64,000 bases of DNA from Candidatus Methanomethylophilaceae archaeon (GTDB lineage: Archaea; Thermoplasmatota; Thermoplasmata; Methanomassiliicoccales; Methanomethylophilaceae), in the NCBI GenBank assembly GCA_944320495.1, contig CALUHR010000006.1:31275-95274 (forward strand). The letters run 5' to 3'. Positions 41 through 60,927 of the stretch are shown in pieces. The notes beneath the pieces are model-generated. The model was given only the letters and a program-made list of their open reading frames with translations. It had not been told where the DNA came from and ran no database searches. The position numbers and the translations under genes are program-made. Numbering within the stretch: position 1 is the first letter of the stretch; every line of letters starts with the position of its first letter.

Positions 41-487
41 TCGGACCAGGTCGTGCAGGCGTGCGTGGTCCCTTTTCATGGCATCGAACTCAGCATTCGG
101 ACAATTCCTTTCCAGGACCTGCAGGGCTCTCGCAACATCCCTCGGAGAGATGGCGATCATGTCCCCGCGGCCGTGGCCGTACCAGACCTGGACGCATCTC
201 GTATGCGGACTGCTCACTTCAACGACTCTCCGGATGTCGACATAGAGGACGCGACTCCTTCCCTACTGGATCGGATCACGCACAGTGATGCCGGTCCCAT
301 CGAACGCATAGCATGTCAAGGAAGGAATCATGACGAGGTAGAGCTCGATGAAGAACAGGATCCCGATCATCAGCCGACACCTCTCCGGCATTGCCAGTAT
401 CATCAGGAGCACGATGACGAGCGAGAGCACCATGCACAGATGGATTGCGGGACCTGCCCTACCTCTCAATCTGATGATGTCGGACAT
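41..487 (-). CDS. Small membrane protein with PH-like C-terminal domain, contains in-frame TAG
   Basis: Two hydrophobic segments (about residues 14-33 and 38-57) are followed by a beta-rich region resembling bacterial-PH/YcxB-type domains; the product would be 148 aa. Codon 75 (263-265) is TAG, and the same frame continues with good coding character on the far side (for example VLYVDIRRVVEV then MIAISPRDVARAL), so TAG is read here as sense, presumably pyrrolysine. The frame then meets CGA at 41-43, which I take as the stop by analogy with other genes in the window; under the standard code the ORF would run off the edge. The ATG at 487 lies just after the end of hel308 on the same strand. Function is unknown. 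It could instead be a nonsense-mutated pseudogene. A similar two-TM plus PH-like protein is encoded at 52311-52808. Confidence 0.55.
263..265 (-). other. In-frame amber codon, putative pyrrolysine
   Basis: TAG interrupts the membrane/PH-like gene at codon 75. The frame stays open and protein-like for about 70 further codons on the other side, up to the CGA at 41-43. Confidence 0.55.
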
Positions 488-530
488 GGATAACCCATCT
501 TCTGTATGAGATTCGTCAGAGTCGATGTTC

Positions 531-2822
531 TCGGAAATCGAAGAGGCTGGCCTGTCTCGGGCCCGCCTCGCCCTTGCCTTCTTCCTTCTTCTCTTCGACG
601 ACGGTCTCGGAGGGTGCGTCTGCATCGCCGGGCTCCCCGTATGCGGCGGCCATCTCGTCGATCAGCGCCTCCTCCTCGGATGGGGACGTGTATCCGACCG
701 GCTCCGCCGACTTTCCCGCCTGCCTGAGCATGGCCTCCGCCATCCCTCTGCCGATCCCGGGGACCGTCGACAGCACCGACACGTCGGAGGCGGCGACCTC
801 CGCCTTGGTCCTGATCCCCCTGTCGAAGAGGGCCCTGGCCCTGGCCCTGCCGATGCCACGGAGGGACACGAGGTCCATCAGCTCCTCCTTTACGCCGTAG
901 CGTATCCTGGTGGAGAGCGGTCTGATCCTTCTGATCGCGGGCGGGTTGAAGATGTAGGCGATCTCGCCCATGGCGTAGATCATCCAGTCCATCATGTCGA
1001 TGCGGCTGCGGATGTCGCCGGGTCCGATGCCGAACCCCGAGGTCATGGTGCCCTCCGGCACCTCCGAGATCCAGTCCTCGGTGACCAAGGCGACCTTCAG
1101 GTCGCTGCCGAAGAGCTCGTACATGTAGTCGTCGCGCTCCGCCGGGTCCACCAGCAGATCATCCTCGTGCTCCGCCTCGAACGCGGACACGCGCTCCTCG
1201 TCGCACTTCTTGGGGTACATGCCGAGCACGTCGGGAGTCATGGCGGCCGCCACGAGTATCAGCAGCTCGTCCGTGTCCTCATCCATCTTCATCACGGCGT
1301 CCCTGAGGATGGAGGCGGACTCGGGGTCGATGCACAGGTCGGAGACCCTCCTCCCGAACGGGAGGACCTCAATCGTCCCTCCCTGGCGGCGGACCATCTG
1401 CTCCCTCTCCAGGAAGTCGACGACGCTCTCCACCGCGCTCTCCACTCCGAACATCTGGGACGTGGCCCCGTAGAACGTGCGGCGCAGGAACTCCACGATG
1501 GATTCCTCGGAGTCGGCGTCGCCGGTCGCGAGAACCCCAAGGATGTGCGTCCTGATGACGTTCCCGTTGAACAGCTGGGACTGCACCCTCTCCGTGTCGT
1601 GCTCGATGTAGTCCTCCCTCAGATGGCCGGCGTCGCGGACGTTCTTCGCCATGAGGACGGCCTCGCCGTAGGGGTCGTATCCCGGCCTCCCGGCGCGTCC
1701 GCACATCTGCTTGACCTCCATCACCGGGATGGGCACGCTGCCTCCGTTCTCGAAGCGGGTGGTGTCCCTCACGATGACCCTGCGGGCCGGGAGGTTGATC
1801 CCGGCGGCGAGCGTCGGCGTCGCGACGATGCACTTGATCAGCCCCGACTTGAAACCGTCCTCCACGGTGCGGCGCTGCCTGTAGGTAAGCCCCGCGTTGT
1901 GGAACGCAGCCCCTCCTGCAACGCACTGAGCCAGCTTCCTGCCGACATCGGTGGCCTCCGCATCCCCCTCGAGGGCGGACCTCTCCGCCGCCGACAGGGC
2001 CCTGCCGTGGCCATGTGCCAGCTTCTCGGCGAGACGTGATGCTGCGGCCTCTGTGGACCTGCGGGAGCTGACGAAGACCAGGCACTGCCCGCCCGAGTCC
2101 AGGGTCTGCATGACGAGAGCCTCCAGATCGTCCTTCGGATTGGGGACGTCCAGGGATGACCCGTCGTCGAAAGTGATCCTCCCGTCCAGGTAGACGCCCT
2201 CCCTAAGGGGGACCGGCCTCCATGAGCTCCTGACCAGGTCCGCGTCCAGCCAGTTGGCCAGGTCGATGGCGTTGGAGATGGTCGCCGACAGGGCGATGAT
2301 CTGGAGATCCGGGTTCCTGCCCATCATCTTGGTCAGCGTGACCTCGAGCGTGGGCCCCCTCCCCGGGTCGTGGATCATGTGGACCTCATCCGCGATGACG
2401 AGTCTCACGTCCCTCATCCAGGGGCTCCCGTGCCTGATCATGGAGTCGGCCTTCTCGGAGGTGGCGACCACCACATCGGCATCGGACAGCCCGCGGTCGT
2501 CACTGTCCAGATCCCCGGTGCTCATGTGAATCCTGAATCCCAGCCTCTCGGAGAAGACGTCGAAGTCGTCCCTCTTCTCGGCGGCGAGAGCCTTCAGCGG
2601 AACGATGTAGAGGACCTTCCCGCCGCGCTGTGCCAGCAGCTTGAGGGCGGGGACCATGCCGATGAGCGACTTCCCGCTCGCCGTCGGTATGGCGGCGACT
2701 AGGTTCCTCCCCTCAAGGGCTTTGGGTATAGCCTCGGCCTGCGGGGGATGGAGCTCCCTGAACCCTGCGGACATGAGCGCGTCCGCGACCGAGTCCGGGA
2801 TGTCCAGCTCATCGACCCTCAT
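531..2822 (-). CDS. hel308: Ski2-like DNA helicase Hel308
   Basis: ATP-dependent 3'-5' DNA helicase acting on stalled or branched replication forks. Motif I is AIPTASGKSLI (about residues 44-54), motif II IADEVHMI, motif III LSATI, motif VI QMCGRAGRPGYD; a winged-helix and ratchet region follows, and a helix-hairpin-helix module (LRGIGRARARALF, TVPGIGRGMAEA) sits near the C-terminus. Read to CGA at 531-533 the protein is 763 aa and ends QASLFDF, a QxxLxxF PCNA-interaction (PIP) motif at the extreme C-terminus, where such motifs normally lie. Under the standard code five more residues follow before TGA at 516. Start chosen at the first Met, before MRVDELDIPD. Transcribed divergently from the gene at 2929. 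Confidence 0.93.
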
Positions 2823-8659: not shown

Positions 8660-9261
8660 ATGGACCTCGAGATCGCTGCCTCCGCGCTGGAGAGCAGGGG
8701 TTACTCAGTGTCGATCCATTCGGACAGGCTTCCGCAAGGGACCACATAGTCTCTGGATGCCGGGGATGCGTGATCGGGTTCGGCGACTCCCGCACTCTGG
8801 AGGCAATGGCCCTCGGCGATGCGCTCTCAGGCTCCTGCACCGTCATCGACCCGGCCCGGACCACGGACAACGACTCATTCCTAGAGGTGGCCCGCTGGGC
8901 GATGTCCGCGGACGTGTTCGTGACATCTGTCAACGCCATGTCCGAGGACGGCGTCATCGTGAACATCGACGGCACCGGCAACAGGGTCGCCGGCTCGCTA
9001 TTCGGTCATCGCAGGATGATCTACGTCATCTCCCGCAACAAGATCGTCCCGGACTTGGATTCCGCCATCGAACGCGCCCGGAACGTCGCCGCACCCATGA
9101 ACGCCAGGAGATACGGTCTCAGGACGCCATGCGTGAGGGACGGCAGGTGTCATGACTGCCGTTCTCCTGACCGTATATGCAACGCGCTCCTCGTCCAGCT
9201 CCGTAGCATGAACGACATGGATGAGGAGGTCGTGCTGATCGACGAGGACCTGGGTTTCCGA
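8660..9261 (+). pseudogene. LUD-domain (DUF162) protein, apparently frameshifted
   Basis: The bulk (8770-9258) encodes a LUD-family domain as found in lactate-utilisation LutB/LutC-like proteins: GFGDSRTLEA, GSLFGHRRMIYVIS, the Cys-rich TPCVRDGRCHDCRSPDRIC, and the terminal strand VVLIDEDLGF. The N-terminal helix typical of the family (MDLEIAASALESRGYSVSI) is encoded from ATG 8660 in another frame, so a frameshift near 8725-8750 is needed; it may be a real mutation or a sequence error. The domain should end after DEDLGF, and there the frame reads CGA (9259-9261), seven bases from the equivalent end of the convergent gene. With standard decoding the ORF would continue to 9354 inside that neighbour. 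Confidence 0.6.
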
Positions 9262-9268: not shown

Positions 9269-9742
9269 TCGCATCGATCCTATGCGGGAGTGCAGACCCT
9301 CCTCACCCCAGACGATCCTGTCCAGATCCCCGTCGTTCCTGTCAACGGTTGTGATGATGAAGGACAGCAGGGCGCGGAGGAAGTCTTCGGACGGCACGTT
9401 CCCCTGGTAGGGGCAGACGTACTCGAATGTTACCATCCCCTTGTCAGGATGGAGGACGAAGCATCCCAGTTCGACCTCGCCGTTCAGTGCATTGATCGCC
9501 CGCAGGACCTCTGTCTGCCTCTCCTCCGGGACGGTGATGCCCAGCACCGAGGAGATCGTGAGCCATCCGTTCTCCGCCGTGGCCAGCAGACCAATCTCCA
9601 TGTCATCTCCCGGGATGATGCAGTCGAGGCTCAGCCCGCTCTCATCCCTGTTGCGCTCGTCGGAGACATCCCCGATGATCCTCCAGATGGTCTCGAGCAC
9701 CATCTTGTCAATCTTTCCCTGAAAGTCGAACAGCCCTGCCAT
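9269..9742 (-). CDS. YbjN-type (type III secretion chaperone-like fold) protein
   Basis: 157 aa when read to the CGA at 9269-9271. The fold layout matches YbjN-domain proteins: N-terminal helix, CIIPGDDMEIGLLATAENGWLTISSVL strands, a helix with VLRAINALNGEVELGCF, and a terminal helix FLRALLSFIITTVDR. Function in archaea is unknown. With the standard code it would extend another 150 bases to 9119, deep into the convergent LUD gene, with a low-complexity Arg/Pro/Cys tail that looks like antisense read-through. No CGA occurs earlier in the frame. Confidence 0.65.
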
Positions 9743-9803: not shown

Positions 9804-10346
9804 ATGACCCGGAACAGCTACTCCGGGAACTCCCTCGTCATCGGGAGGTTCCAACCGCTCCACAACGGACATATGGAGGTCCTCATGAAGTGCGCGTCCG
9901 AGTCCGAGAGGCTCATCGTGGGCATCGGCAGCGCGCAGTACTCCCACCACCCGTCCAATCCATTCACGGCCGGGGAGCGCTACCTCATGATCGACGAGTC
10001 CCTCAGGGAGGCTGGGATAGACAACTACAGCATCGTCCCCATCGAGGACCTGAACAGATACTCGGTGTGGGTCGCCCACGTGGAGTCGATGTGCCCTCCG
10101 TTCGGCAGGGTCTACACCAACAACCCGATGACCCGCAGGCTATTCGAGGAGGCGGGGTACGAGGTCAGCAATTCCCCCATGTACGACAGGTGTCGCTATT
10201 CGGGCACCGAGATCCGGAGGAGGATCCTCGAGGGCGAGGAGTGGAGGCATCTCGTGCCAGAGGCCACGGCACGCGTCATAGACCAGATAGACGGCGTGGG
10301 GCGCATCGCGGCCATCTTCAAGGGTGATTCCGGTGCTCCCCTCCGA
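9804..10346 (+). CDS. nadM: Nicotinamide-nucleotide adenylyltransferase
   Basis: Makes NAD+ from NMN and ATP. The archaeal NadM signatures are present: GRFQPLHNGHMEVL (nucleotidyltransferase HxGH motif), GSAQYSHHPSNPFTAGER, and the C-terminal YSGTEIRRRIL (ISxTxIR-type motif). Archaeal NadM is about 170-180 aa; here the frame meets its first CGA at 10344-10346, giving 180 aa. Under the standard code the ORF continues to 10853 through all of the next gene, which is clearly spurious. It overlaps the start of the CinA-type gene (10324), a second enzyme of pyridine-nucleotide metabolism, which supports the pairing. Start at ATG 9804 removes a nonconserved 16-residue extension. Confidence 0.93.
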
Positions 10347-10815
10347 GGTCACCGAGCTTCTGGACATCCTGGGTTCCCGGGGGCTGACCCTCGCATGCGC
10401 CGAATCCTGCACCGGCGGGATGATCGGAGCCGCGATAACCGAGATGCCGGGCGTGTCATCGATTTTCATGGGCAGCGCCGTCACCTACAGCAACGACGCC
10501 AAGGAGTCCATTCTAGGGGTGTCCCACCGGACGCTGCTGGATCACGGCGCGGTGAGCGCCGAGACCGCCGGGGAGATGGTCCGCGGTGCGATGCGCGCCT
10601 ACGGATCGGACACCGCGATCGCGGTCACCGGCATAGCCGGCCCAGGAGGGGCCACGGCGGAGAAGCCGGTCGGGCTTGTGTACATCGCCGTCGCAGACGG
10701 GCCGAGGGTTGTCGTCTCCAGGAACGTCTTCGACGGGGACCGCGCCCATGTCCGCGCATCCACCGTGAGGGAGGCGTGCAGGCTCCTCCGCGAGCTGATC
10801 GAGGGCAGGCTGCGA
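10324..10815 (+). CDS. pncC: CinA C-terminal family, nicotinamide-nucleotide amidohydrolase PncC
   Basis: Deamidates NMN in pyridine-nucleotide salvage. Family motifs: LACAESCTGGMIGAAIT, GSAVTYSNDAKESILGV, GAVSAETAGEM, and AVTGIAGPGGATAEKPVG. GTG start at 10324, overlapping nadM. Bacterial PncC ends shortly after the last helix (about 165 aa); here the helix ACRLLRELIEGRL is followed directly by CGA (10813-10815), giving 163 aa, and a 34-base spacer with a TTCTTATC element then leads to the next start. No other CGA occurs in the frame. Standard decoding would extend it to 11553 across the ThiF gene. Confidence 0.9.
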
Positions 10816-14911: not shown

Positions 14912-15454
14912 ATGCCAGCAGCCCTGATACTGTGCGGAAGCGCGCGCGAGGACGGAGTCACCGAGAGGATGTGCCGCACCGCATCGGAGACCCTGGAGTC
15001 GATGGGATACGACACCGTCTCCATCCGCATCACCGACGATGTCTCCCATTGCAGGGACTGCGGACTCTGCAGGGGCGGCCGTTGCGTCCTGGACGACGCG
15101 ATGTCGGGGATATACGAGGAGTTCGCGAAGGCGGACCTCCTGGTGCTGGCGACACCGGTGCACTTCAGCGGCCCGTCGTCGCTGATCAAGTCCGCCGTGG
15201 ACAGGTTCCAGCCGTACTGGTACAACAGGGGCCTGTCCCATCCGTCCGTCGCCCTGGGACTCGTCTGTGCGGGAAGCGACTCCCCCAGGTTCGGACCCAC
15301 CGAGAGCATCTTCAGGGCGTTCTGCGCAACCGTCGGGATGAGATGGCTGGGTCAGTTGGAGTTCCCCGATACCGACAGGAACGGAGGGGAGGGCGCGGCG
15401 GAGGCCGTGGAGGGATTCATCAGAAGCGCGGTCGGAGCCTCAGCGGAGCAATGA
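14912..15454 (+). CDS. NADPH-dependent FMN reductase / iron-sulfur flavoprotein family
   Basis: 180 aa from ATG 14912 (a longer start at 14876 lacks family support). Flavodoxin-like: LILCGSAREDGVTERM (phosphate loop), CRDCGLCRGGRCVLDD with the compact four-Cys cluster motif, and LVLATPVHFSGPSSLIKSAVDRF. This is the layout of archaeal iron-sulfur flavoproteins, which carry one 4Fe-4S and FMN and act in electron transfer or O2/H2O2 detoxification. Converges on the next gene with a 23-base overlap at the 3' ends. Confidence 0.85.
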   Translation: MPAALILCGSAREDGVTERMCRTASETLESMGYDTVSIRITDDVSHCRDCGLCRGGRCVLDDAMSGIYEEFAKADLLVLATPVHFSGPSSLIKSAVDRFQPYWYNRGLSHPSVALGLVCAGSDSPRFGPTESIFRAFCATVGMRWLGQLEFPDTDRNGGEGAAEAVEGFIRSAVGASAEQ

Positions 15455-25846: not shown

Positions 25847-28609
25847 ATGGAATCCTCTGGAGAACGGGCCTCCAATCTGTCGGTGAGGGCGAGATCCCTT
25901 TGGGCGAAGGTCTCGAATCAGAGAGGTAGCTCCGATTGGCTATCGCTTCCAACCCACATGAGCGACTCATGTATGGTATGCAGGGAGATCTGGAATGATT
26001 GGGTCAGTCCGGCTGTGAAAAGCATCATTGTTCGTGGGATTAGCATGTCCGACGGTTCCGATGCTTCTTTGGAAACGGCAGAGGGATTGGCATTGTTTCT
26101 TGCCGCCGCTCACGATCTTGGCAAAGCGTCCCCCGCGTTCCAATGTAGGATCATACCATCCAATCTTGATATTCAGGAGGAATGTCGTCAGAGGCTGGCA
26201 GGTTCAGGTCTTGAATTGAATCTAAATCTAAGCCAGTCTCATTCCCCGAAGCACGCTATCATCTCGGAGATGATCCTTGAGAGGAATGGAATCGACCGTA
26301 CCATTGGTGTGGTTCTAGGAGGGCATCATGGTAAGCCGCCGGGTTTTGCGGATCTCGAGAATCTCAGCGCTTACAGCGGACACACGGGATCGAAATCGAA
26401 GTCATGGGTAGAGGTGCAGGACGAGCTCCTGGTTTTCGCATGCCAGCTGTCATCATTCGATCTCGGGATGGTGCGCCAAATAAGACTGGATCTCCAATCG
26501 CAGGCTGTACTGACAGGTCTCGTGATAATGTCCGATTGGATGGCCAGCGATGAGACTCTCTTCCCCTATTCGGAGGATGGGATCGGACAGTCGACATCCG
26601 AGCGCATCGGGGAGGCATGGGCCAGCATAGGTATCAGGAGATGGGATGCGGAAGACGAATGGTCGTCATATGACCTCTACGAGGGAAGGTTCGGATTCAC
26701 GGCCAGGCCATTCCAGAGAGCAGTGGCGGATGTCGCAGCCAATGTCTTCGGACCATGTATGATTGTGATCGAGGCACCGATGGGTGAAGGTAAGACAGAA
26801 GCTGCCCTGGTGGCCGCAGAGACGCTGGCGAGCAGATTCGGGGATGGGGGAGTGGTATTTGCGCTGCCTACACAAGCCACCGCTGACGGGATATTCAAGA
26901 GATTCCTGGATTGGGCAGAGAAGGCGTCCCCTGGTTTCGATCGTCATTCGATATTCCTCGCTCATGGGAAATCCAGATTCAACAATCAGTTCAACAGGCT
27001 CAGATCTTCAAATATGAGGGTCGGGGGCGAAGATGGCAACTTGGTGTCAGGCAACATCGTAGCCATGGATTGGTTCAGCGGTCGCAAGAAGGGGCTGTTG
27101 TCCGATTTCGTCGTAGGGACTGTTGATCAGGTTCTAATGGCTGGTCTTAAGCAGAGGCATCTGGCCTTGAGGCATCTGGCCTTGTCAGGCAAGGTCGTGG
27201 TGATTGACGAATGTCATGCTTATGATGCTTACATGGGCAGTTATCTCTCACTCGTGCTGCGTTGGCTGGGGTCTTACAGAGTGCCCGTCATACTGATGTC
27301 TGCCACTCTTCCCTCGGGGACCCGTAGGATGCTCATGGAGTCCTACTCCAACAGTAGCGTCGATCAAACCGAAGAGGATTCCATGGCGTATCCGAGGATT
27401 TCCGTAGTGGATGGAAACGAGACATCCTATGTATTTCCCGGTTCTTCATCAAGAAGGTATGATGTCAGAATCGAGCGCGTCACGGATTCGGAGATGATGG
27501 ACAAGCTGCATGCATTTCTGCAGAACGGGGGATGTGCCGGTGTTATAGTCAATACCGTTGCCCGTGCACAGGGATTCTACGAGAAACTGAAGTCAGAATA
27601 CCCAGATGATCGTGTAATTCTCATCCATTCTGCGTTCACCGGAACCGATCGTTCGGTCATAGAGTCGGATGTCATGGATGCTCTGCATGAGGCCCACAAC
27701 ACTCAGCAGACGAGGACGATCGTTGTCGGGACACAAGTGTTGGAGCAATCCCTGGACATTGACTTCGATTTGCTGGTCAGCGACATTTGTCCCATGGATC
27801 TGCTGATCCAGCGTATCGGACGTCTGCACAGGCATGACAACCCGCGTTCCTCCAAGATGGCCGAAGCGACATGTCTGGTCCTCGACACAGATAGTGAGGA
27901 ATTCGAGAAGGGTTCGGAGGCCGTCTACGGCAGATTCCATCTGATGAATGCCCGTCTGCTCCTTCCGGAATCCCTGAACATACCGGACGATATCCCGAGG
28001 TTGGTCGAATCCGCTTACGATCCATCCGGGATCCCATGGGGGACGGAAGTCTTCGAGGATTATCTCGATGCCAAAAGGGATGATAGTGACCTGATATCAA
28101 TCGAGAGGAGGAAGGCAAGGGCTTTCCAGATCTGTCGTCCGGACAGGTCTCCGGAAGGCGATGGCAGTCTGGTGGGATGGCTAGAGATGGCCCTGTCGGA
28201 CAAAACCGAAAGAATGGCGGAATGCACAGTCAGGGATGCAGATCCGTCGGTGGAGGTCATCCTGGTATGTCGCGATCATGCGGGGAATTTCAGAACTTTG
28301 CCCTGGGTGGGGGAGACCGGAGGTTCGATCATACCTCCGGATTCCTGTCCGGATGTCGGATTGGCATACGAGATGGCAGGGTGCAAGATACGCCTGCCGG
28401 GCAGATTGACCCGCAGGTACAACATAGATGAGACTGTGAATAAACTAGAGTACATTATATAGCAAAACATCATACCTCAGGTGTGGCAGGAGTCCCATTG
28501 GCTCGCAGGGGAACTCTTCCTCCTGTTGGATGAGGACCTGACGGTGACGTTCGAGGGGCTCAGGATGAGGTACGACAGGGAGTATGGAATGAGGGTTTGC
28601 GATGATCGA
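25847..28609 (+). CDS. cas3: Type I-E Cas3 helicase-nuclease with in-frame TAG
   Basis: CRISPR interference nuclease-helicase recruited by Cascade. HD nuclease: H in PTHMSDSC, HDLGKASPAF (about 88-97), HAIISEM, GGHHGKPP. Helicase: EAPMGEGKTEAAL (about 307), VIDECHAYDAYM, LMSATLPS, and QRIGRLHRHDN. At 28460-28462 the frame has TAG (codon 872) yet continues, in frame, with the typical Cas3 C-terminal domain: WQESHWLAGELFLLLDE and the hallmark RMRYDREYGMRV end. TAG is thus sense, presumably pyrrolysine. The frame then meets its only CGA at 28607-28609, overlapping the cas8e start (ATGATCGA), giving 920 aa. If TAG were a stop the protein would lack its C-terminal 48 residues. Lower GC and more varied codons than the housekeeping genes. 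Confidence 0.9.
28460..28462 (+). other. In-frame amber codon in cas3, putative pyrrolysine
   Basis: TAG at codon 872, between EYII and QNIIPQV; the downstream in-frame sequence is the conserved C-terminal domain of Cas3. Confidence 0.75.
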
Positions 28610-31860: not shown

Positions 31861-31861
31861 G

Positions 31862-32575
31862 ATGCCTACCGTGCTGCTGAGGCTGGCCGCGCCCATGCAG
31901 TCATGGGGTGTGGACAGTGTATACAACACGAGATCCTCGGGCGTGATGCCATCTAAGAGTGCCGTGATAGGGCTTGTGGCCTCCGCCATGGGGCGCTCGA
32001 GGCGTGATGTGCTGGACGATCTCAGCGACCTCAGGTTCGGTGTCAGGGCGGATCAGCCCGGAAGGATGATGAGGGATTACCAAACGGTCGGGAATCCGAA
32101 GAAGGACGAGGTCATGTTCACCATCGACCGTTACTATCTGTCGGACGCCATATTCCTGGCAGGTCTGGAAGGGGATGCGGGCATCGTAGGGGACATAGAC
32201 GCAGCTCTAAAGAGCCCCATGTTCCCGCCGTTCCTCGGCAGGCGCTCATGTCCTCCCACCCAGCCTCTGTCGTTGGGCGTCCGTGATTTCGGATTGACAG
32301 AGGCGCTGTCACAGGAGGGGTGGCAGGCATCCGCATGGTACAGACGCAAGTCCCTGCCGAAGGTCAGCCTGGAGGCGGTCATGGATTCCGATGCCGAAGG
32401 GGCGGATTCCATGGTGCGCGATGTGCCGGAATCGTTCGATCCCAGGCGTCGCGAGTACGGATACCGCCAGGTGCGTCATGTTCTCGATTTCGTATCGTTC
32501 GATAATCCGGACAGTCGCAGAAAACCGATCGTCACGGATCACGACCCCATTTCAGTGATCAGGGGGTCCAGCCGA
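31862..32575 (+). CDS. cas5: Type I-E Cas5e (CasD)
   Basis: 237 aa. LLRLAAPMQSWGVDSVYNTR, SKSAVIGLVASAMGR and FGVRADQPG are standard Cas5e motifs; the subunit caps the 5' handle of crRNA. The frame meets CGA at 32573-32575, where CGATG overlaps the ATG of cas6 exactly as TGATG does in ordinary operons. Read with the standard code it would run 18 codons into cas6 (to 32629) with unrelated sequence. This is one of the cleanest CGA-as-stop junctions. Confidence 0.94.
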
Positions 32576-34166: not shown

Positions 34167-34786
34167 TAGTGGTGGTCCTCTCCTGCTGTCCTCCTTCGCT
34201 ACGCGGGGATCTCACGAAATGGCTCTTCGAGATCAGCACCGGGGTGTATGTCGGCCATATCGCCGCCCGTGTCCGCGATTCGCTCTGGGAGCGCATAGTT
34301 TCCAGCGTTGGTTCCGGAAGGGCGATCATGGCGTTCTCGGCAGATAACGATCAGAAGTTCGATATCCGCGTCCACAACACGGAATGGGGTCTCGAGGAGA
34401 TTGATGGGATCAAGGTGATGATGCGCCAGGGGGTCGGAGACACGATGAGAGGCGGGTTCAGCAACGCCAGCCGCATGCGCAGAGCGATGAATCCCAAAAC
34501 GGACAGGCAGGACTCCTGTTACACCGCAGTTCATGTAGGCTACAGCTCCCCCTCCCTCGAGATCGGACGCATCACAGAGGTGGATTTTACGACCGTCCGC
34601 AACGGACGCATCGTGGAAAGGGGACAATGGAGGGAGGGACAGTCCGATGTTCTGCTCAAGGAATCGCTGGATGCGATCTCGCGGTCGGAGAGGGTGGTCA
34701 TGTATCGTGCGGGGAGGCAGGTGCAGTTCCTTGCAGGATCAGTCAACACACGTCCTGGATCGGGAACGTGTAACGGATGTGTCCGA
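34163..34786 (+). CDS. cas2: Cas2 (type I-E) fused to a degenerate DnaQ-like exonuclease domain
   Basis: Residues 1-90 are a canonical Cas2e (MIVVVLSCCPPSLRGDLTKW, TGVYVGHIAARVRDSLW, QKFDIRVHNTEW). The following ~115 residues resemble the N-terminal part of a DEDDh exonuclease (SSPSLEIGRITEVDFTTVRN then GRIVERGQ), as in known I-E Cas2-DnaQ fusions, but the first catalytic Asp/Glu positions appear to be His and Tyr. The exonuclease C-terminal helices continue in another frame, so the domain is decayed. The frame meets CGA at 34784-34786, 8 codons before a TAA. Confidence 0.85.
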
Positions 34787-34955
34787 GTTGGTGAAGGGGA
34801 GACTACATAATCTCGGGGATACAGGTCTGGAATCCGTGTGCAGGAATCTTGGTATAGATCCAGATGAGAGGTCCTGTAGCGGTTCGATAGTCCGGATTTA
34901 TGAATCATTGCATAAACGATATTATTTTGGCATCAGAATGTTGATAGACAACTAA
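34735..34955 (+). pseudogene. Out-of-frame remnant of DnaQ-like exonuclease
   Basis: A different frame downstream of the cas2 fusion encodes VLDRERVTDVSELVKGRLHN then LESVCRNLGI, which looks like the C-terminal helices of DnaQ/DEDDh exonucleases (lDtlelar... l..Lc..lGI). The conserved H/D of the last motif is missing. Best read as a frameshifted relic of the cas2 fusion. Confidence 0.45.
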
Positions 34956-38841: not shown

Positions 38842-39321
38842 ATGGAGCAGATCAAGGGAAGGGTCTGGGTCTTCGGCGACAACGTGGACACGGACCAGAT
38901 CATACCGGCGGAGAGGCTCGTCGCGGCGAACCTCGACCACCTCAACGACTACATATTCGAGAAGGTCAGGCCCGGATTCGGGCAGCAGGTGCAGAAGGGC
39001 GACATCCTCATCGCCGGACGCAACTTCGGATGCGGTTCCAGCAGGGAGCACGCGCCCCTCTCGCTCCGCGAGGCCGGCTTCTCGTGCATCATCGCCGAGA
39101 GCTTCGCCAGGATCTTCTACCGCAACTCGTTCAACACCGGGCTCCTCCTGGTGGAGTGCAAGGTGGACGCGAAGGAGGGCGACACCGCCACCGTCGACGT
39201 CGACAAGGGGACGGTGGAGTGCGGGGGCAGGGAGTACACCTTCCCCGAGTACCCGCCGTTCATCACCGAGCTCATCCGCTCCGGCGGGCTCATGAACCTC
39301 ATCAAGGAGGGGAAGTTCCGA
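38842..39321 (+). CDS. leuD: 3-isopropylmalate dehydratase small subunit
   Basis: 159 aa. DNVDTDQIIPAERL, GRNFGCGSSREHAP (substrate-binding swivel domain), and IIAESFARIFYRNSFNTGL. Pairs with LeuC. Its frame ends AAG-TTC-CGA-TGA: CGA at 39319-39321 overlaps the leuB ATG as CGATG, followed at once by an in-frame TGA, so the end is the same to within one residue under either code. Confidence 0.94.
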
Positions 39322-43039: not shown

Positions 43040-43483
43040 TCGGGCCAGGTACTCGTCCAGGACGTTCAGGGCATCCTTGACCATGTCGACCTTCATCTTG
43101 ATGTTGTGGTACATGAACCCCATGCCGCTTGCGGTGCTGTCCACGACGCCTCCGGTCTCGGCGAGGTGCTCGTTGCCGATGTTCCTGACGCCGTTCATCC
43201 TACCTGTGGTGGATTCGATGTACTCCTCCAGGTCGTCCCTGCAGGTCCTCGGGTCCTCCCTCGGGCCGTCCGCATCGTAGAGGAGGACGTTCCTGGATCC
43301 GCAGTACGGGCAGGTGTCGAGTCTCATGTCCATTTCCGGGAGGGAGAGGCGGCTGTCCTTGCACACGAACACCTCCGCGTTGTACTGTGTCAGGAGGCGC
43401 TGGCAGCAGCACAGGACCATCCTGTCGTCGATCATCAGCAGTTTGCCGATGGGGGCTCTGAGCATGGGTCGGGCGAGATGCAT
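43040..43483 (-). CDS. Hypothetical protein with CPYC zinc-type motif
   Basis: 147 aa, family not recognised. The N-terminal part contains MVLCCCQRLLTQYNAEVFVC and then DTCPYCGSRNVLLYD, a pattern consistent with a small zinc or redox site; the C-terminal part is helical. ATG 43483 is close to an AT-rich promoter (TTCTATTATC). The frame ends GCC-CGA-TAA, that is CGA at 43040-43042 followed immediately by TAA. Confidence 0.6.
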
Positions 43484-44634: not shown

Positions 44635-46641
44635 ATGTCAACGAATGCTATCACCAGATTTGGTTGCATTATTGTTGCCATTCTACTTCTGGCTACAGTT
44701 GCAACCGGTGTGGCTGAATCCGCACCATCTGACAACTCATCATCGAACAGTGATGAGGTAAAGCCCAATCCACTAAATTTGCCTGCTATGTGCTATTCCA
44801 ATGAAGCTCATGCACAGACAAAGTTTGGCTATGCATATGCAACAACGGCTATTGGCACATGGAGAGGAACATGGACCGATAGCGGACATTGGATGTATGA
44901 ATACGGATTGACTGGAATTGGTTCGTATGATGCAAGCCGTATTTTTGGAGCCAAGTTTGAAGTCAAGGAGATTGAAAATCCTTCTGCAATGACACTGTAT
45001 CTGGGTGTCGATGAGGGGGGTGTCTGGAGCACTAATGGTTCAGATGGCTCACAAATGGCTATCAGTAATGCAGCTGAGGCGATAATTGGTGTGGCTATTT
45101 CAGCAATAGGTGGGCATATCGATTCTGCTTGGACTGCTGTAACGACAATAATTGATCTAATGAAGTCAGGGGCTTCTCATACTGAAGCCCAATATTCAGA
45201 TTTGTTGAGTTGGAATTGGTTGGTAGGGGTTGAAGAGACTGGTCAGTATTCCTCTTTCGTTGTCCAAGTGGATGCCGATAATACAGCCTCAATATCGACA
45301 GAGTACTCCATCTACTATGGAAGCACAGAAGCCGATATAAAGTGGCTGTCAACAGGAGTGTTCGAATTCCAAATGCCTGCCACTGGCAATCCCAACACCA
45401 TGACCGAAGAGGAAAGGATCGAGAACAATATCATAACCGTACCAAGAGACCAGATTGCGTATAAGGCGGCCGAACTGGACATATCCCCGTCTCAGGTGAA
45501 GTCTCTCATAGAGTCTGACCAGGATGAGTTCTACTTCATAGGAACGTCTCCGATCTGTCTTTCACATGATGTACAGGAGATGCAGTCAGTTCCGGTTTCT
45601 AACGAATCATATATGACATCTCAGGTTCCGGAAACCACCGAACTCGTCGTTCTTTCCGACTCGGATGCAACCATCTCATCTATAGAGATGCCATGCAACG
45701 TATCCATCCAAACGACATTCGATTCGATCGGCAGGGACGACATCGTTCTCATCGACGGAGATTGGGCAACCACGGTGGAGCGTCATCAGTTGAACTCCAA
45801 GGTTCGTGATCTCGTAGACAGTGGTAATGCCGTTCTGTTGATGTCCGAGTCTTCGGAACTCATCTCTTCAGAGAACACAGGGTATTCGACGGCTTTTGCT
45901 ACCGATGCAGATGTGTATGGGATACGTCACGATCCTCTATCAGGTGCCACGTACTGCTATAGCTATGTTGGAATGGATGCAGAAGACTCCATGCTGACCG
46001 CATACGAGTGGGCCGAATCATACAAGACGGCCAATATCACGAGAAATGCTACCACTGACCCTCCGATTCTATACGCCTTCACCAAGGTCAATCAAGGAGG
46101 GCTCGGAGAGATGGTCATCGAGACCAAGTACACCAAGAGTAGCACCGACGACTGGGAAGTGAATCTGATATTGACCGAGTACAGTCTCACCGGAACCCCA
46201 TATCCGGATTCCTCCCTCTTCGAGAACAATAAGGCCATTGCCGACATGACGATATCATGCGAACATGTGAACTCGGAGCTTCTGGACTATGGTCCTTCAT
46301 TCTCATCCAGTACACTTGAAAACCACACTGTCGATTTGGAAGCGTTACAGTCCACTGTGCACGTCGAAAAGAACTGGGACTATACGATTCTGGAATGCGA
46401 GACCACCGTCAACGTACAGGGTGATTCCTTCGAGATACACTACGACACTGACGAATATGGTAGCCACAAGACAGAATCAAAGACTGCGAGACCAGGAACT
46501 ATATGTTTGGCAACGAATGAAGGACCATACTGCTATCAGGAAACTGAGTACTACTCGGTGAACTATCTGTTGGACAAGGCATGGTCATTGGAGGACACAT
46601 ACACACTCGATGAATGCTCGATGGTCGTGTCCATATTCCGA
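44635..46641 (+). CDS. Large secreted hypothetical protein
   Basis: 668 aa from ATG 44635 (RBS AAAGGAGA). A signal peptide (CIIVAILLLATVATGVAES) is followed by a Ser/Asn-rich linker and a long beta-rich ectodomain rich in Tyr, Ser and Thr; no C-terminal anchor is visible. The repeated SIEMPCNVSIQT / ECETTVNVQG type strands suggest immunoglobulin-like folds. Function unknown. AT-richer than the flanking genes, suggesting transfer. The frame ends ATA-TTC-CGA-TGG-TGA: CGA at 46639-46641 with a TGA two codons later. Confidence 0.7.
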
Positions 46642-46939: not shown

Positions 46940-48490
46940 TCGATGCCTCAGGGTCATCATCGGCGATTTCGGCAGCTGCGCATCCAATGCGGAGAGGATC
47001 CTGCGCGTCCTGGGCGTGGCGCCCACGGTCTGCCAGACTATGCCGTCCCCGCGGGCCAGTATGGTGTCCAGCCACCGTATAACATCGACCAGGGGATCCG
47101 AGTAACCGGCATCGGAGAGACGGTTCGACATCTCGCACCATAGGATCAGTGCGATGAAGCGGATCATGGACATCCCGTGCTCCTTCTCCTCCAGCAGGTT
47201 GATCCTGTCGATCATCAGGTCCTCCCTGAGCATCGATATCGCCTCATCGAACGCACGTCCGTTCTCGAGGCAGTCCATGACATCCTCCCATGTCTCGAAC
47301 CCGCGGGTGTAGAGGACCTTCACACCGTTGAGGGCCACATCCAGCTCGTCCTGTTTCACCGAGATCCGAAGGCGCCCGTCCCTGATGCCGATGTCGAAGA
47401 ACCGTGCGTAGCGTCCTGCGACGTCCCTGAACTGCTTGATGGCCTCCGCCGGATCGAGCTTCCTGAGATGTCTCTCGATGACGGTTATGCGGGCCATCAG
47501 GCGTTCGGGTTCCTCGACGTCGTCGTCCTCGCGTCTGAATGCCCAGACGGTTATGCGGTCCTGTGGGCGGGAGGTGTGGATCTTCGGATCCCCCTCGGAG
47601 ACGATCTCCATGGTTTCCGTGTCATCGGTCCTCTCGGGTGCCTCACGGAGTCCGCGGATGTGTTTCGATACGATGCCCGCCTCGACCGAGCATACTCTGT
47701 ACCTCTTGCCGTGACGCTCGTGCAGCTCGCCATCGTCGACCATCCCCGCGACCTTCACGGCACACGGCGTGTCCGGCAGCGCGGTGGTGATGAACTCCGC
47801 CCCGCGCTCCACCATCCTCTCGATCCATGCGGCGCTTCCGGGGTAGGTGCGTTCGTAGATGTAGGTGCATCTGTCGGCTCCGAGCTCACGCATGATCTTC
47901 ATGTAGTTGATCATCTCCATCTCCCTCAGGGACTTGTAGATGTCAATGGTGAAATGGACGGGGATGCCATTCCTGTCGTTCTCGAACATTATCACAAGGT
48001 CCGCATCGCCGAACACGGTGCTGCCGTCCTCGCCCACGATGCTGCTGTCATACGAGTATACCTGGGGGGCCCTCGCGACGCGGAGGCAGAAAAGCTCCCC
48101 GCGCCCATCGGCATCCGATCCCAGGTGCTCCAGCAGCTCGTCTATCATCGACGGATGGAAGACGTCCTCGATCCCGAGGAGCTCCCGGGACATGTTGCCC
48201 TCCATCTCCTCCTTGAATGATGTGGGATACGCACAGGATTGGAGCAGCGATACGGCACTGGCCAGTGCCCAGTCGCCGTATTGGCCGTAGGCCTTGCGCA
48301 GATCCTCCCTGAGGCCGCAAGATTCCGATATGCGGATCAGGGCGTGGCAGGAACCGAACTTCTTCGCCGTGAGTATGCCGGCGCCAACCGTGTACGGTCT
48401 CATCCTGAGCCTGGTCTCCTCGAGGGACCTGTCGATGTCCCTCGTCATCCTGTTGATGCGGTCGTAATCGTCGATCGGTCCTTCGCTCAT
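46940..48490 (-). CDS. IS1634/IS4-type transposase-like protein, second of a tandem pair
   Basis: 516 aa to the CGA at 46940-46942 (a TAA follows 25 codons later at 46862). Transposase-like layout: helical N-terminus with CHALIRISESCGLREDLRKA and YGDWALASAVSLL, then VYSYDSSIVGEDGSTVFGDA (first acidic residue region), CTYIYERTYPGSAAWIERM, and the C-terminal SMIRFIALILWCEMSNRL helix. The first aspartate is plausible (YDSS), while the second DRG-type position looks altered (YERTYPG). The gene starts one base after the TGA of the transposase-like gene upstream, so both are cotranscribed. Confidence 0.65.
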
Positions 48491-48491
48491 C

Positions 48492-54031: not shown

Positions 54032-55438
54032 TCACTTCTTGAGCTGGTTCCTGTAGTGCTCGCAGTTGCTGATCGTGATTCCGAGGACCTTCTCGATGTT
54101 CATCTTGGCGGGGAGTCCCTTGGGGCTGTTGGGCTGGCCGGTGACGACTCCGAGGCCCTCCTTGTCCCTGATGTCCCTGATGAAGTTCTCCTCGGTGAGC
54201 TGGAACGGGTCGATCTCGAGCTTGTCGGCGACGTACTTCTTGGCGGCGTCGATCTTCATGTTCTTGGCGAACTGCATCCTGCAGACCAGATCGCCGGTGG
54301 TCCTCATTCCGCCCATTCCGGAGCAGAGGCCGTGGGCAACCGCCATGGAGGCGATGTCCCCGGATCCGACCTATATTCCGTCGATGTTGGCGATCTCGAT
54401 GAGGATCTTCGCGGCCCTCCCGGTGATGTCGGTGGGAGGAAGCTCGCACATCGGGATTCCGCCGACACCCATTCCCATGTTGGCGTGGACGGGGATGTTG
54501 GCGACCTTGACGCATTCCTTGGTGATGACGGCGGAGCGGGCGGCGTTCCAGGCGAAGCTCTTGGAGGTGTTGGTGTTGACGACGGATCCGAAGATGTTGA
54601 CTCCGGCCTTCTCGCACAGCTTGACCTGCTCGTGGGGGTACATTCCGGCGACGACCTTGCCGTCGTACTCCATCCCGCCGTGGATTCCCAGGACGGTCTC
54701 CGCGGACATTCCGCACTCGATGTAGGCGTTGGGGTTGGACTTCCTGTAGTTCTCCATTCCCTTCAGGGTGGCGACGAACTCGGCGTCTCCGGCGGAGGCG
54801 ACGGTGTCGAAGTTGAATCCCTCGCAGCCGACCTTGTCGATCTCCTGGCAGACGTATCCGATGTCCCTGGTGAGGTGCTCGGCGGCAGCCTCGGAGGCGG
54901 CCATGGACTCCTCGATCTTGAACTCCCTCATGAGGTCGGTGGGGTTCGCGTAGGGTCCGTCGGGGGCGTAGTAGAGACCCATGTTGGGCATGGCTCCCAT
55001 GACGAGAGGCAGGGTGGTCAGCATGGCCATCTGCTCGTAGTTGGAGGTCTCGCAGTTGATGACGGCCTTCACGGGCTTGATGGAGTAGTCCATCCAGGCG
55101 AGCTCCATGGAGTCGAAGGTGAGGGACCTCTCGTAGACGAGGAGACCCTCGAGCCTGCCCATGCAGGGGATGGCGTTCCCGCTTCCGCCGTTGTCCTGGT
55201 TGAATTTGATGGCACCGGCGTCCTTGGAGAGGCAGACCTCCCTTCCGGGCTCGATGCTGGTGATCTTGCTCTTGTCGCAGACGATCTCGTAGATGCGCTC
55301 CATCTCGTCCTGGGAGAGCTCAGGGACCTGGGCGGCGTCGGCACCGTCAGCCATACCAGCGACGATGTCGGACATGATCTGCTCCTTGGTCATCCTGACC
55401 CTTCTGCCGTCTCCCATCCTCGTTATGTAGTCTTCCAT
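54032..55438 (-). CDS. mtbB: Dimethylamine methyltransferase MtbB, second copy (pyrrolysine protein)
   Basis: 468 aa with TAG at codon 356 (54371-54373) in IDGI-Pyl-[60 protein letters not shown], and MRTTGDLVCRMQFAKNM. Cotranscribed with mtbC upstream and the permease downstream; strong GGAGG before the ATG. Clearly diverged from the + strand copy (50380), so not a recent duplication. Confidence 0.96.
54371..54373 (-). other. Pyrrolysine codon of second mtbB
   Basis: In-frame TAG at codon 356 of the minus-strand copy. Confidence 0.95.
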
Positions 55439-58188: not shown

Positions 58189-58938
58189 AACGAATCACCA
58201 GTCGAATTCCATTTCACCGGATGCTGCATGGACGAACGGGTCGAAACCTCCGGTAGAGGCTTATGGCATACTGAACGGGATACCCCCGTTGATAACTAAC
58301 CATCGCATTCGTTTTGCATTTCACACCCTCCCGGCTCACCCTCTACGGGCACTAGCCGGAAATCTCGGGAGGCTCAGGATCTCTGCGCCCATCCAGTGAT
58401 TTGCTGATTGAAACGACAAGACATGGGTTTTTAAAACAATGTATTAACGGCGTTGATTTAGAGAGTTAAACTGTAATCGTTTGGATTAAATTGTTAAATA
58501 AATTAGTATGAACTCGGGATTGGATGGAATCTAAGAAAAAATTAAATATAAGTGTATGAACGTGAAAAATATTGAATTAATTTTCATCAGTAGTGTTTAC
58601 AGTATGACATAATTTCGGCAGTTGTGTGGATAAAAAGACATTTAATGTAGATTCATACGCAGGTTAACTAATTCCTCGATTCGAACAATGTTCATTTTCG
58701 GATATTGGAGATAGCGGATAACATCAGTCATCATCCCATTGGAAGCAGGTCCGTATTTCAGACCCGAGGGGAACGATCATTGATGGAGGTCGAGGGAATC
58801 GTACGTACTGTCGATCGATATGAGGTGAGGAATTAGGTCTCTATTTTTCTTGTTATAATATATGGGGCGAGTAGGATTGTTAAATTATTTTATATAATCC
58901 GTACGGGATGGAAAGATGCCCTTGACGGAGATGCCGAC
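58189..58938. promoter_or_regulatory. 750-base AT-rich intergenic region
   Basis: Separates two divergent transcription units. No gene. TTTATATAATCC (about 58889-58900) is the likely TATA box of the HyuA-like gene, about 40 bases before its ATG. I saw no tRNA or riboswitch signature. Confidence 0.4.
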
Positions 58939-60927
58939 ATGAGGATTGGACTTGGTCTCGATACCGGAGGTACGTACACAGATGCTGTCATAATGGATCT
59001 TGAGAGGGGGGAGGTCCTCTCCAAGGCTAAGTCCATGACGACGTACGAGGATCTGACGATCGGCATTGAGGGGGCCATCGATAGGCTGGACCAGTCCCTT
59101 CTGGGGTCCCTGGGGGTCGTCGCGCTCTCATCCACGTTGGCCACCAACTCGGTCGTCGAGGGAAAGGGTTGTCGTGTCGGCCTGATATGCATCGGAGGCG
59201 AGTACGATCGCACCCTCGGTGCGGACTACATGATCTCCGTCAGAGGCGGGAACGACATACACGGGGATGAACTGGAGCCGTTGGGCGTCAAGGAGGCCGA
59301 GGAGTTCATGCGCTCCATAGTCGGCAAGGTGGAGGGTCTGGCGATATCCGGGTACCTGTCGGTCAGGAACCCGGCCCAGGAGAAGAGGCTCAAGGAGATG
59401 GCCAAGGCGATCCTAGATGTCCCCGTCGTGTGCGGGTACGAGCTGACCTCCGAGCTGGGGTTCAACGAGCGCACCACCACCTGTATCATGAACAGCAGGC
59501 TCATTCCGATAATGGACGAGCTCATACGCTCCGTCCGCAAGGCTCTCGATGAGAGAGGTATCAGGGCACCGCTGATGATATCCCGCGGAGACGGGAGCAT
59601 GATGACCGATGCGGTAGCACGTGAGCGTCCGGTGGAGACGATCCTCTCGGGTCCTGCGGCTAGTCTCATGGGTGCCATGCACATGACGGGCATTAGGGAC
59701 GCTGTTGTCATGGACATGGGCGGGACGACCACCGATATCGGGATCCTCAGGGATGGTCGCCCCAGCCTGGACCGTGAGGGCGCCATCATAGACGGGAAGA
59801 GGACCAGGGTGATGGCTGCGAGGGTGTATACATCGGGCATCGGAGGCGACAGTCGCATAGTGGTGAATCCCGGGAGCGTCATTCTCACGCCACAGAGGGT
59901 GATCCCGCTGTGCGTGGCCGCCCACAGGTGGTCGGAAGTGGCGGAGGGTGTCAGGACCCTCACACAGAAGCTTCCGCATCATCTCACGCGCCCTCTGAGC
60001 AGGCCGGAGCTCCAGAACTTCGATTACGAGTACTTCCATACGGTCAAGGACCCGTCCGAATCATTCGTCATGGGTGAGTACGACAGGAGGTTCCTGAGGC
60101 TCGCGAAGGAGCGTCCGGTCACCCTGAGGATCGCCACCATGGAGCTTGGATGCAACACGTACGACATCCAGATTCAGAGGATGGAGGAACTCGGACTCAT
60201 ACAGAGGGTTGGCATAACACCGACCGACATCCTCCATGTGGAGGGAAGCTACAGGGAGTTCGATTCGACGGCATCCGAAATCGGAGTGAGGTATCTCGCA
60301 TCACTCGTCGATGTAAACGTCGACCAGTTCGTCACCATCGCCAAGCGTGCCATACGCAACAAGTTGTGCGTGGAGCTTATGAAGGCCCTGATCACCGAGG
60401 ACTCCGGCGAACCCAACCTTGGGACCACGGGAATGGACCTGCTCATGAAGGGGATAACCTCCCGTCTAGGCAAGGACTTCGGGTGCTCCATCATCCTGTC
60501 GAAGCCTATCATCGGCATCGGTGCCCCTTCGGGGGTCTACATGAGATGGGTGGGGGAGGCCCTGCACACCGATGTGATGATCTCGGTCGATTCCGATGTC
60601 GGTAATGCCGTCGGGGCCGTGTGCGCATCCATATCGGAGTCGGTGAAGTACGTCATCAGGCCGATGGTCCCACGCCGGGAGGGTGCGGTCTACGAGGTGT
60701 TCTCCAAGATGGGTCGCAAGTGGTTCGCCACCCTGGAGGAGGCCATGGAGTCTTGCGAATCAGAGGCCAGGGAATACGTCACGGAGGCGGCGCTCGAGAA
60801 CAACGCGGACGTCGTCGAGATATCCGTGGACCTGGACAGGAAGCCGTACATATATATCCCGGGCGAGGGACGTCTGGACGAGGTCACGATGGTCGTGACC
60901 GCGGCGGGGAAGCCAAGGATGTTCCGA
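58939..60927 (+). CDS. Hydantoinase/oxoprolinase HyuA-family protein
   Basis: 662 aa to CGA at 60925-60927 (standard reading would add 8 residues to TAA). ASKHA ATPase-fold motifs: GLGLDTGGTYTDAVIMDLER, SSTLATNSVVEGKG, ISRGDGSMMTDAV, VETILSGPAASLMGA, and VVMDMGGTTTDIGIL. HyuA-family proteins open lactam rings in an ATP-dependent way or activate partner enzymes. It precedes a non-pyrrolysine MttB homologue, so it may act on or supply that pathway. A complete scan of the frame found one CGA only, at codon 663. Confidence 0.8.

What the first reader, a model, noticed from the sequence alone, without database searches (positions are those of the whole stretch)
41..60927. CGA appears to function as a stop codon
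Fifteen genes in this window meet an in-frame CGA at or within a few residues of where they should end: PH-like protein (41), hel308 (531), LUD (9259), YbjN (9269), nadM (10344), pncC (10813), hypothetical (15432), cas3 (28607), cas5 (32573), cas2 (34784), leuD (39319), zinc-motif protein (43040), secreted protein (46639), transposase (46940) and hyuA-like (60925). In the genes I walked in full (lonB, purC, egsA, leuA, cas3, cas8e, transposase 1, hyuA-like, nadM, pncC, YbjN, LUD) there is no internal CGA, although CGC, CGG, CGT, AGG and AGA are all used. Several genes lack any other stop for hundreds of bases. TGA and TAA are still used normally elsewhere. I know of no described archaeal or bacterial code with CGA as stop; vertebrate mitochondrial AGA/AGG is the closest precedent.
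Basis: partly seen in the sequence, partly recalled or inferred. Interest (0 to 1): 0.95.

Follow-up and report, generated by a model that had tools for sequence, protein, structure and literature searches.

The report
Arginine codon CGA used as stop
In this gut methane-producing archaeon the arginine codon CGA stands at the end of about a quarter of the sampled genes and is all but missing from gene interiors, while the gene for the protein that likely reads it as a stop keeps one conserved CGA inside itself, which would be the first change of a sense codon into a stop signal known outside mitochondria and plastids.

Summary
The window is from a Methanomethylophilaceae archaeon. In 464 kb of its genome, with frames chosen without using CGA or any stop, CGA is absent from confident interiors (0 of 77,083 codons) and is 88 of 368 gene ends (TGA 265, TAA 12, TAG 3). 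Coding signal falls at CGA as it does at TGA; no other sense codon behaves so. At the same ends relatives carry TGA or CGA. A congener (G007) has CGA at 42 of 87 ends, and no tRNA-Arg(UCG) was found in it; strain COG_1, of another genus, has 36 of 115.
(2) The release-factor gene aRF1 holds exactly one internal CGA, at one arginine in 23 of 24 typed congeners and at another arginine in 12 of 12 of a second genus. The exception is G007. (3) Ribosomal protein L18e keeps a conserved CGA too.
I infer that aRF1 terminates at CGA in competition with a weak tRNA-Arg, and that the CGA in its own gene is feedback control. Both are untested.

The parts
41..43 (-). CGA in frame of PH-like protein; end of frame outside window, not testable here
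531..533 (-). CGA stop of hel308 (TGA 5 codons on)
   Evidence: TGA at this codon in 17 and CGA in 3 of 22 relatives whose alignment reaches it
9259..9261 (+). CGA stop of LUD-domain gene
   Evidence: LUD domain ends before it; convergent with YbjN, otherwise overlap
9269..9271 (-). CGA stop of YbjN-like gene
   Evidence: TGA at this codon in the 98% identical L071, the one relative found
10344..10346 (+). CGA stop of nadM
   Evidence: 7 CGA and 3 TGA of 12 relatives reaching it; frame otherwise open 169 codons into pncC
10813..10815 (+). CGA stop of pncC (CinA family)
   Evidence: CinA domain ends at residue 158, CGA is codon 164; 10 TGA, 1 CGA of 12 relatives
15432..15434 (-). CGA stop of hypothetical gene (TGA 4 codons on)
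28607..28609 (+). CGA stop of cas3, after an in-frame TAG at 28460-28462 that is probably read as pyrrolysine
32573..32575 (+). CGA stop of cas5, overlapping the ATG of the next gene by one base
   Evidence: Cas5 domain ends at residue 252, CGA is codon 285
34784..34786 (+). CGA in cas2 frame, 8 codons before TAA
   Evidence: weak alone
39319..39321 (+). CGA directly before the TGA of leuD
   Evidence: uninformative alone
43040..43042 (-). CGA directly before the TAA of the zinc-motif gene
   Evidence: weak alone
46639..46641 (+). CGA two codons before the TGA of the secreted protein gene
   Evidence: weak alone
46940..46942 (-). CGA stop of transposase-like gene (TAA 26 codons on)
60925..60927 (+). 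CGA stop of hyuA-like gene (TAA 8 codons on)

Best explanation
CGA ends about a quarter of the sampled genes and is all but missing inside genes, and it is most likely read as a stop codon by the archaeal release factor aRF1 in competition with an odd tRNA-Arg(UCG) that would be weak. Shown by sequence: CGA is excluded from gene interiors, stands at 88 of 368 sampled gene ends of this genome, swaps with TGA at the same ends in relatives, and is kept at one fixed arginine of aRF1 itself. Inferred: aRF1 recognises CGA directly (as a relaxed first base of UGA); the CGA in aRF1 is a feedback control, where plentiful aRF1 would end its own translation early and scarce aRF1 would let tRNA-Arg read on; TGA to CGA changes at gene ends are then free to accumulate. 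In G007, where no tRNA-Arg(UCG) was found, the change from arginine to stop looks complete.
For: Frames chosen with TAA, TAG, TGA and CGA all neutral: CGA 6 of 106,994 codons (margin 6) and 0 of 77,083 (margin 15); TGA 35 and 11; CGG 140 and 49. The CGA codons in won frames at margin 3 or more looked, by inspection, to lie at gene starts or ends. 368 gene ends: TGA 265, CGA 88, TAA 12, TAG 3; coding score 1-10 codons after CGA -0.60, after TGA -0.63; next standard stop at median 27 codons against 30. Each of 61 sense codons tried as a pseudo-stop: only CGA has clear coding before (0.20) and clear loss after (-0.65). Homology alone, codon at the exact place of a relative's TGA/TAA: this genome CGA 15 of 166 (next sense codon 4), G007 11 of 38, G138 8 of 54. 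31 of 88 CGA frames would run at least 60 bases into another gene's frame. G007: 42 CGA, 41 TGA, 4 TAA of 87 ends, 0 CGA of 21,567 interior codons, 42 of 43 tRNA hits typed and no TCG. aRF1: exactly one CGA at GGQ-102 in 23 of 24 of this genus, at GGQ-155 in 12 of 12 of genus g6; the preceding codon is GCT or TCT in 23 of 23, though GCT is 37 of 588 Ala and TCT 25 of 494 TCN Ser codons elsewhere in these genes. In bacteria, loss of the RF2 control codon goes with high use of RF2's own stop codon (PMC12421855, abstract); G007, with the highest CGA use, is the one that lacks the aRF1 site.
Against: tRNA-Arg(UCG) is present in this genome, so CGA can probably still be read as Arg here. CGA is also absent or nearly so inside genes of relatives that hardly use it as an end (G001 1 of 57,848; G035 0 of 7,020, G041 0 of 8,573), so emptiness alone does not prove a stop. 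G001, G002, G004 and others have the CGA in aRF1 but rarely CGA ends (1 of 114, 2 of 47, 1 of 142). No aRF1 substitution separates CGA users from non-users: Gln56/Ala59 next to NIKS is shared with g5, g8 and g12, and g12 aRF1 genes hold several CGA. L18e keeps a CGA, which a simple release-factor feedback does not explain. G138, a heavy user, has a TCG tRNA without the faults seen in this genus. A homology-only frame choice left 49 CGA of 47,729 aligned codons; many sit in short or antisense frames, not checked one by one. No protein or RNA data.
Confidence: 0.8

Rival explanations
1. CGA is an unassigned codon: too little tRNA-Arg(UCG) reads it, ribosomes stall there, and rescue factors free the protein; aRF1 does not recognise CGA.
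For: In G007 no tRNA for CGA was found; CGA is avoided even in congeners that hardly use it as an end.
Against: CGA is about half of the sampled ends in G007, hard to square with stalling at every second gene. A CGA fixed inside aRF1, at different arginines in two genera, makes sense if aRF1 itself reads CGA.
Confidence: 0.1
2. C-to-U RNA editing turns CGA into UGA, as in plant organelles; the genetic code is standard.
For: CGA and TGA swap at homologous ends; two plant mitochondrial genome papers hold the phrase 'CGA stop codon' (seen only as a search listing; that this is by editing is recalled).
Against: CGA is barred from gene interiors, so CGA would have to be edited wherever it stood, while those in aRF1 and L18e would not be. 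CAA as pseudo-stop has no coding before it, and CAG is not among the 14 lowest rows printed, so no sign of edited CAA or CAG ends.
Confidence: 0.06
3. CGA is an ordinary rare Arg codon that happens to lie near gene ends; the true stops are the next TGA/TAA.
For: Seven of the 15 listed genes have a standard stop within 8 codons; tRNA-Arg(UCG) exists; CGA is rare across the family.
Against: Coding signal stops at CGA, 52 of 88 frames run over 20 codons further, and relatives have TGA at the CGA.
Confidence: 0.02
4. Assembly or sequencing error turned TGA into CGA.
For: The window is from a draft genome of 14 contigs.
Against: The same CGA recurs at nadM in 7 of 12 relatives and the pattern is strong in other genomes and in another genus.
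Confidence: 0.01

Closest known systems
Sense-to-stop reassignments in mitochondria (UCA and UCG in Sphaeropleales, PMC6821328, abstract and passages read; AGA/AGG in vertebrates, recalled)
   Same: A sense codon is emptied from genes and then stands at gene ends; in the algae changes in the release factor go with it.
   Different: Here in cellular archaeal genomes of about 1.3-2.4 Mb, with the old tRNA still present in this species and several congeners and the codon kept inside the release-factor gene.
CGA/CGG reassignments in bacteria found by Codetta (PMC8629427, abstract and passages read)
   Same: The same Arg codons become rare and take a new meaning.
   Different: There to Trp or Gln, in low-G+C genomes. 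[quoted passage not shown]
Autoregulation of bacterial RF2 (prfB) by a premature in-frame stop (PMC12421855, abstract and outline)
   Same: A release-factor gene carries early in frame a codon that its product would read as stop; heavy users of that codon lose the site.
   Different: Here the codon is CGA and the frame goes straight on, so reading on would need a tRNA, not a frameshift.
Pyrrolysine at UAG in the same archaea (PMC4824259, whole text; PMC9499178, passage)
   Same: One codon with two outcomes, set by competition between a tRNA and the release factor.
   Different: UAG goes from stop to sense; CGA goes the other way.

Membership tests
Sense-to-stop codon reassignment | Codon emptied from sense positions | tested here: met
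   0 of 77,083 codons in the 464 kb sample; known exceptions outside the sample, aRF1 and L18e
Sense-to-stop codon reassignment | Codon stands at conserved gene ends, swapping with standard stops | tested here: met
Sense-to-stop codon reassignment | No other sense codon behaves so | tested here: met
   61-codon control, 18 rows printed with the 14 lowest
Sense-to-stop codon reassignment | Cognate tRNA lost, window's genome | tested here: not met
   tRNA-Arg(UCG) at C13:413317; hence 'dual meaning', not complete reassignment, in this species
Sense-to-stop codon reassignment | Cognate tRNA lost, G007 | tested here: met
   42 of 43 tRNA hits typed, no TCG; genome 87% complete, so loss is likely, not proven
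Sense-to-stop codon reassignment | Release factor changed to read the codon | tested here: inconclusive
   No aRF1 substitution separates users from non-users
Sense-to-stop codon reassignment | Peptide release at the codon | not testable with these tools
   needs biochemistry
Release-factor autoregulation (RF2 type) | In-frame codon read by the factor inside its own gene, conserved | tested here: inconclusive
   Conserved CGA in 23 of 24 (g1) and 12 of 12 (g6) aRF1 genes; that aRF1 reads it is inferred
Release-factor autoregulation (RF2 type) | Programmed +1 frameshift | tested here: not met
   aRF1 continues in the same frame; so it may work like RF2 control but is not of that family
C-to-U edited stop | U at the site in RNA | not testable with these tools
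   no RNA reads

The most novel reading that the evidence does not exclude
A group of gut archaea is caught in the act of turning a sense codon into a stop codon: aRF1 has learned to read CGA, the codon was emptied from genes but kept inside the aRF1 gene as the sensor of a feedback loop, then spread to gene ends in several lineages, and in one species the last tRNA for it is gone, so that CGA is now a plain stop codon as common as TGA, while TAG in the same family goes the other way and codes for pyrrolysine.
Probability: 0.65. Interest if true: 0.97.

Novelty: new variant of a known kind. Interest (0 to 1): 0.94.

Why it matters
Sense-to-stop changes are described as rare even in mitochondria, and changes of nuclear codes as virtually all stop-to-sense (PMC6821328, passage). 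I found no report of one in a cellular genome (searches; open PubMed Central only, no preprints). Living relatives here show what look like the stages side by side: codon rare, codon emptied, codon dual, tRNA not found. That would make the order of events in code change directly testable, and the aRF1 gene offers a candidate control loop. In practice, standard gene calls for these gut methanogens may misplace many gene ends, up to about half in a species such as G007.

Tried and rejected
Stop-to-stop ORFs aligned with relatives: the interior counts were spoilt by antisense and overlapping frames (1498 CGA of 89,571, 49 of 47,729 after filtering); I replaced them by a codon model that leaves CGA and stops neutral and by a stricter homology test of ends only (1,506 of 5,238 ORFs kept after removing overlaps). 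First run of the model failed on a bad margin. A model trained on 53 kb of G030 alone fell into antisense frames (211 CGA); I dropped that row and use 5 CGA of 40 ends. The first aRF1 alignment took wrong frames for some rows; one search replaced it. A tRNA pattern search gave mostly non-tRNA hits and its list was cut after G011; I used only strings that read as tRNA. I looked for aRF1 substitutions that mark CGA readers: Gln56/Ala59 mark a wider group, Ala79 is in all 24 of g1 but only some of g6 and g12; no clean marker. Considered and rejected: chance near gene ends, sequencing error (see rivals). Not pursued: structure prediction.
Full report
WHAT IS IN THE WINDOW. About half of them alone prove little, because a standard stop follows within eight codons; the others matter. 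pncC: the CinA domain ends at residue 158, CGA is codon 164, and the frame then stays open for 246 codons across the next gene. nadM runs 169 codons further, over pncC. LUD and YbjN, which face each other, end seven bases apart if CGA is a stop and overlap otherwise. cas3 reaches its CGA only through an in-frame TAG; the Cas3_C profile is then matched whole (E 4.8e-26 against 5.6e-12 without), and pyrrolysyl-tRNA synthetase is in the genome.

WHOSE GENOME. The window is G000:C6:31275-95274 of a 1.77 Mb draft, 90.6% complete. The Lon gene places it among Methanomethylophilaceae; L071 (CASFYI010000049.1, an uncultured Methanomassiliicoccales archaeon) is 98% identical.

TEST 1, INTERIORS. I took the window and 20 other stretches (464 kb, 26% of the genome). 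Frames were chosen by a codon model in which TAA, TAG, TGA and CGA count for nothing. In won frames CGA is 6 of 106,994 codons, and 0 of 77,083 at a stricter margin; TGA is 35 and 11, CGG 140 and 49; CGA is 277 per 10,000 in the sequence at large. The CGA codons left in won frames (margin 3 or more) looked, by inspection of the list, to lie at gene ends or before the likely start. Emptiness is not special to CGA users: G001 1 of 57,848, G039 0 of 15,345, G041 0 of 8,573, G035 0 of 7,020, G031 0 of 3,308. In the order's outgroup G136 CGA is an ordinary codon (11 of 3,408).

TEST 2, ENDS. From 396 won segments, 368 distinct gene ends: TGA 265, CGA 88, TAA 12, TAG 3. Mean coding score per codon falls from 0.21 (30 to 10 codons before) to -0.60 (1 to 10 after) at CGA; from 0.34 to -0.63 at TGA. 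The next standard stop comes after a median of 27 codons (TGA: 30). Two of the three TAG 'ends' stay open for over 100 codons, as expected of pyrrolysine. Each of the 61 sense codons was tried as a pseudo-stop (the 14 lowest and 4 highest were printed): CGA alone is clearly coding before and non-coding after; TTA (18 ends) and CAA (52) come next but have no coding before them. For 31 of 88 CGA ends reading on would cover at least 60 bases of another gene's frame. CGA ends overlap an ATG by one base in 20 of 88, TGA ends in 21 of 265.

TEST 3, HOMOLOGY ONLY. At the exact place of a relative's TGA or TAA, this genome has TGA 92, TAA 5, CGA 15 of 166 pairs; no other sense codon exceeds 4. CGA in the other sets: G007 11 of 38 (TGA 13), G138 8 of 54 (TGA 22), G021 6 of 37, G019 3 of 33, G002 2 of 47, G030 1 of 45, G026 1 of 21, G001 1 of 114, G004 1 of 142, G035 0 of 21, G039 0 of 33, G041 0 of 17, G008 0 of 10, G020 0 of 29, and 3 of 278 in 29 mixed loci. 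An earlier, looser version gave CGA 13 of 181. Of named relatives whose alignment reaches the end: hel308 17 TGA, 3 CGA of 22; pncC 10 TGA, 1 CGA of 12; nadM 7 CGA, 3 TGA of 12. The same-species L071 has TGA where the window has CGA in hel308 and YbjN, and CGA in nadM and pncC.

SPREAD. By codon model, CGA ends: G007 42 of 87 (100 kb); G138 36 of 115, G019 16 of 47, G021 16 of 57, G024 6 of 16, G020 6 of 39, G026 4 of 33, G008 2 of 30, G039 3 of 53, G041 1 of 40, G035 0 of 38; G030 5 of 40; G004 13 of 305, G001 11 of 309 with weak coding before CGA. G138 is the genome of L099, 'Methanomassiliicoccaceae archaeon COG_1'; its aRF1 coordinates equal those of G047 in genus g6, so heavy CGA use occurs in two genera.

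THE tRNA. This genome has five tRNA-Arg types: GCG, TCG, CCG, TCT, CCT. So CGA's own tRNA is there. It is odd: pair 31-39 is A.A, in a set where only 2 of 43 distinct tRNAs have any mismatch in the anticodon stem, both tRNA-Arg. A BLAST search with it matched 17 of 31 genomes of the genus, this one included; 16 matches are whole tRNAs, 15 of them have A.A or C.A at 31-39, and the 16th (G003) has C instead of U at position 33. The pattern search adds G008 (A.A type) and G001, G005, G006, G010 and G011, whose strings show C33; the list was cut after G011. I read this as a weakened tRNA; that is inference, and short anticodon stems can also widen decoding (PMC13092985, start of abstract in the listing). 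G138 has a TCG tRNA without these faults. G007: 43 tRNA hits, 42 typed, Arg only TCT, CCT, GCG, CCG; it is 87% complete, so loss is likely, not proven.

THE RELEASE FACTOR GENE. aRF1 lies outside the window (C2:85942-87135). In 72 aRF1 genes, 23 of 24 of this genus have exactly one CGA and always at the Arg 102 codons before GGQ; G019 makes another. In genus g6, 12 of 12 have exactly one, always 155 before GGQ. In g5, 3 of 3 have one at -169 (one has a second). Elsewhere the count runs from none to four. The exception in this genus is G007, which has CGC there and whose aRF1 frame meets CGA where the others end. In this genus the codon before is GCT or TCT in 23 of 23, rare codons otherwise (37 of 588 Ala, 25 of 494 TCN Ser), and the Lys two codons on is AAA in 17 of 23. 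So the site is held at the level of bases, not only of the protein. This is what a leaky stop in a release-factor gene would look like. Bacterial RF2 genes carry a premature stop passed by a frameshift, and lineages with high use of RF2's stop codon lose it (PMC12421855, abstract); G007 fits that second rule. Here the frame does not shift.

A SECOND SITE. Ribosomal protein L18e keeps a CGA in 'AAIW-R-DIA'. A pattern open to any Arg codon there matched 45 of 79 family genomes (in g1, g5, g6, g8, g12): 41 have CGA, 4 have CGT (G007, G012, G019, G020, all g1). The 34 others did not match and were not examined. The bases around it are conserved too. Those genera also share Gln, Glu or Ser at 56 and Ala at 59 of aRF1, beside the codon-reading NIKS motif, where the others typed have Tyr or Phe and Ser. 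Suggestive, but g12 aRF1 genes hold several CGA, so the change alone does not bar the codon.

HOW IT MOST LIKELY WORKS. Shown: emptied from interiors, standing at ends, swapping with TGA, held in aRF1 and L18e, no tRNA-Arg(UCG) found in G007. Inferred: aRF1 reads CGA, tRNA-Arg(UCG) competes weakly, the aRF1 site is feedback, and end use follows by drift from TGA. Why L18e keeps a CGA is open. Interior CGA at further sites in the 74% of this genome not sampled cannot be excluded.

NOVELTY. PMC8629427 (abstract, passages) reports CGA to Trp; PMC9825746 (passages) says Codetta cannot detect sense-to-stop changes; PMC6821328 (abstract, passages) calls sense-to-stop changes rare and describes them in mitochondria; PMC9499178 (term search) reviews archaeal codes and does not contain 'CGA'. 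No report of CGA as stop in a prokaryote was found; the library holds no preprints and few subscription papers.

Noticed in passing
window 28460-28462, 51445-51447 (+), 54371-54373 (-): Three in-frame TAG codons whose frames stay open: cas3 and two genes with the look of pyrrolysine methylamine methyltransferases (name recalled, not searched); PylS is in the genome. TAG and CGA thus seem to change meaning in opposite directions in one cell.
   Followed up: partly
G000:C13:191557-191913 and L18e genes of 44 other family genomes: Ribosomal protein L18e keeps CGA in the conserved stretch ATCTGGCGAGAY in 41 of 45 matched genomes: a second programmed-looking CGA of unknown purpose.
   Followed up: partly
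G000, 464 kb sample: CGA gene ends overlap the next ATG by one base (CGATG) in 20 of 88, TGA ends in 21 of 265.
   Followed up: no
L032:18318-18391 and relatives: tRNA-Arg(UCG) of this genus has a 31-39 mismatch or C33 in every case examined; two closest genomes (G000, G030) also changed positions 32 and 38.
   Followed up: partly
window 25847-34810: Type I-E CRISPR operon (cas3, cse1, cse2, cas5, cas1, cas2 by Pfam; type name recalled), at least two of whose genes end at CGA.
   Followed up: no
L161:11424 (-): A possible further internal CGA in a large regulator-like gene of G001; CGA also in the relative in L203, other codons in nine other relatives.
   Followed up: no
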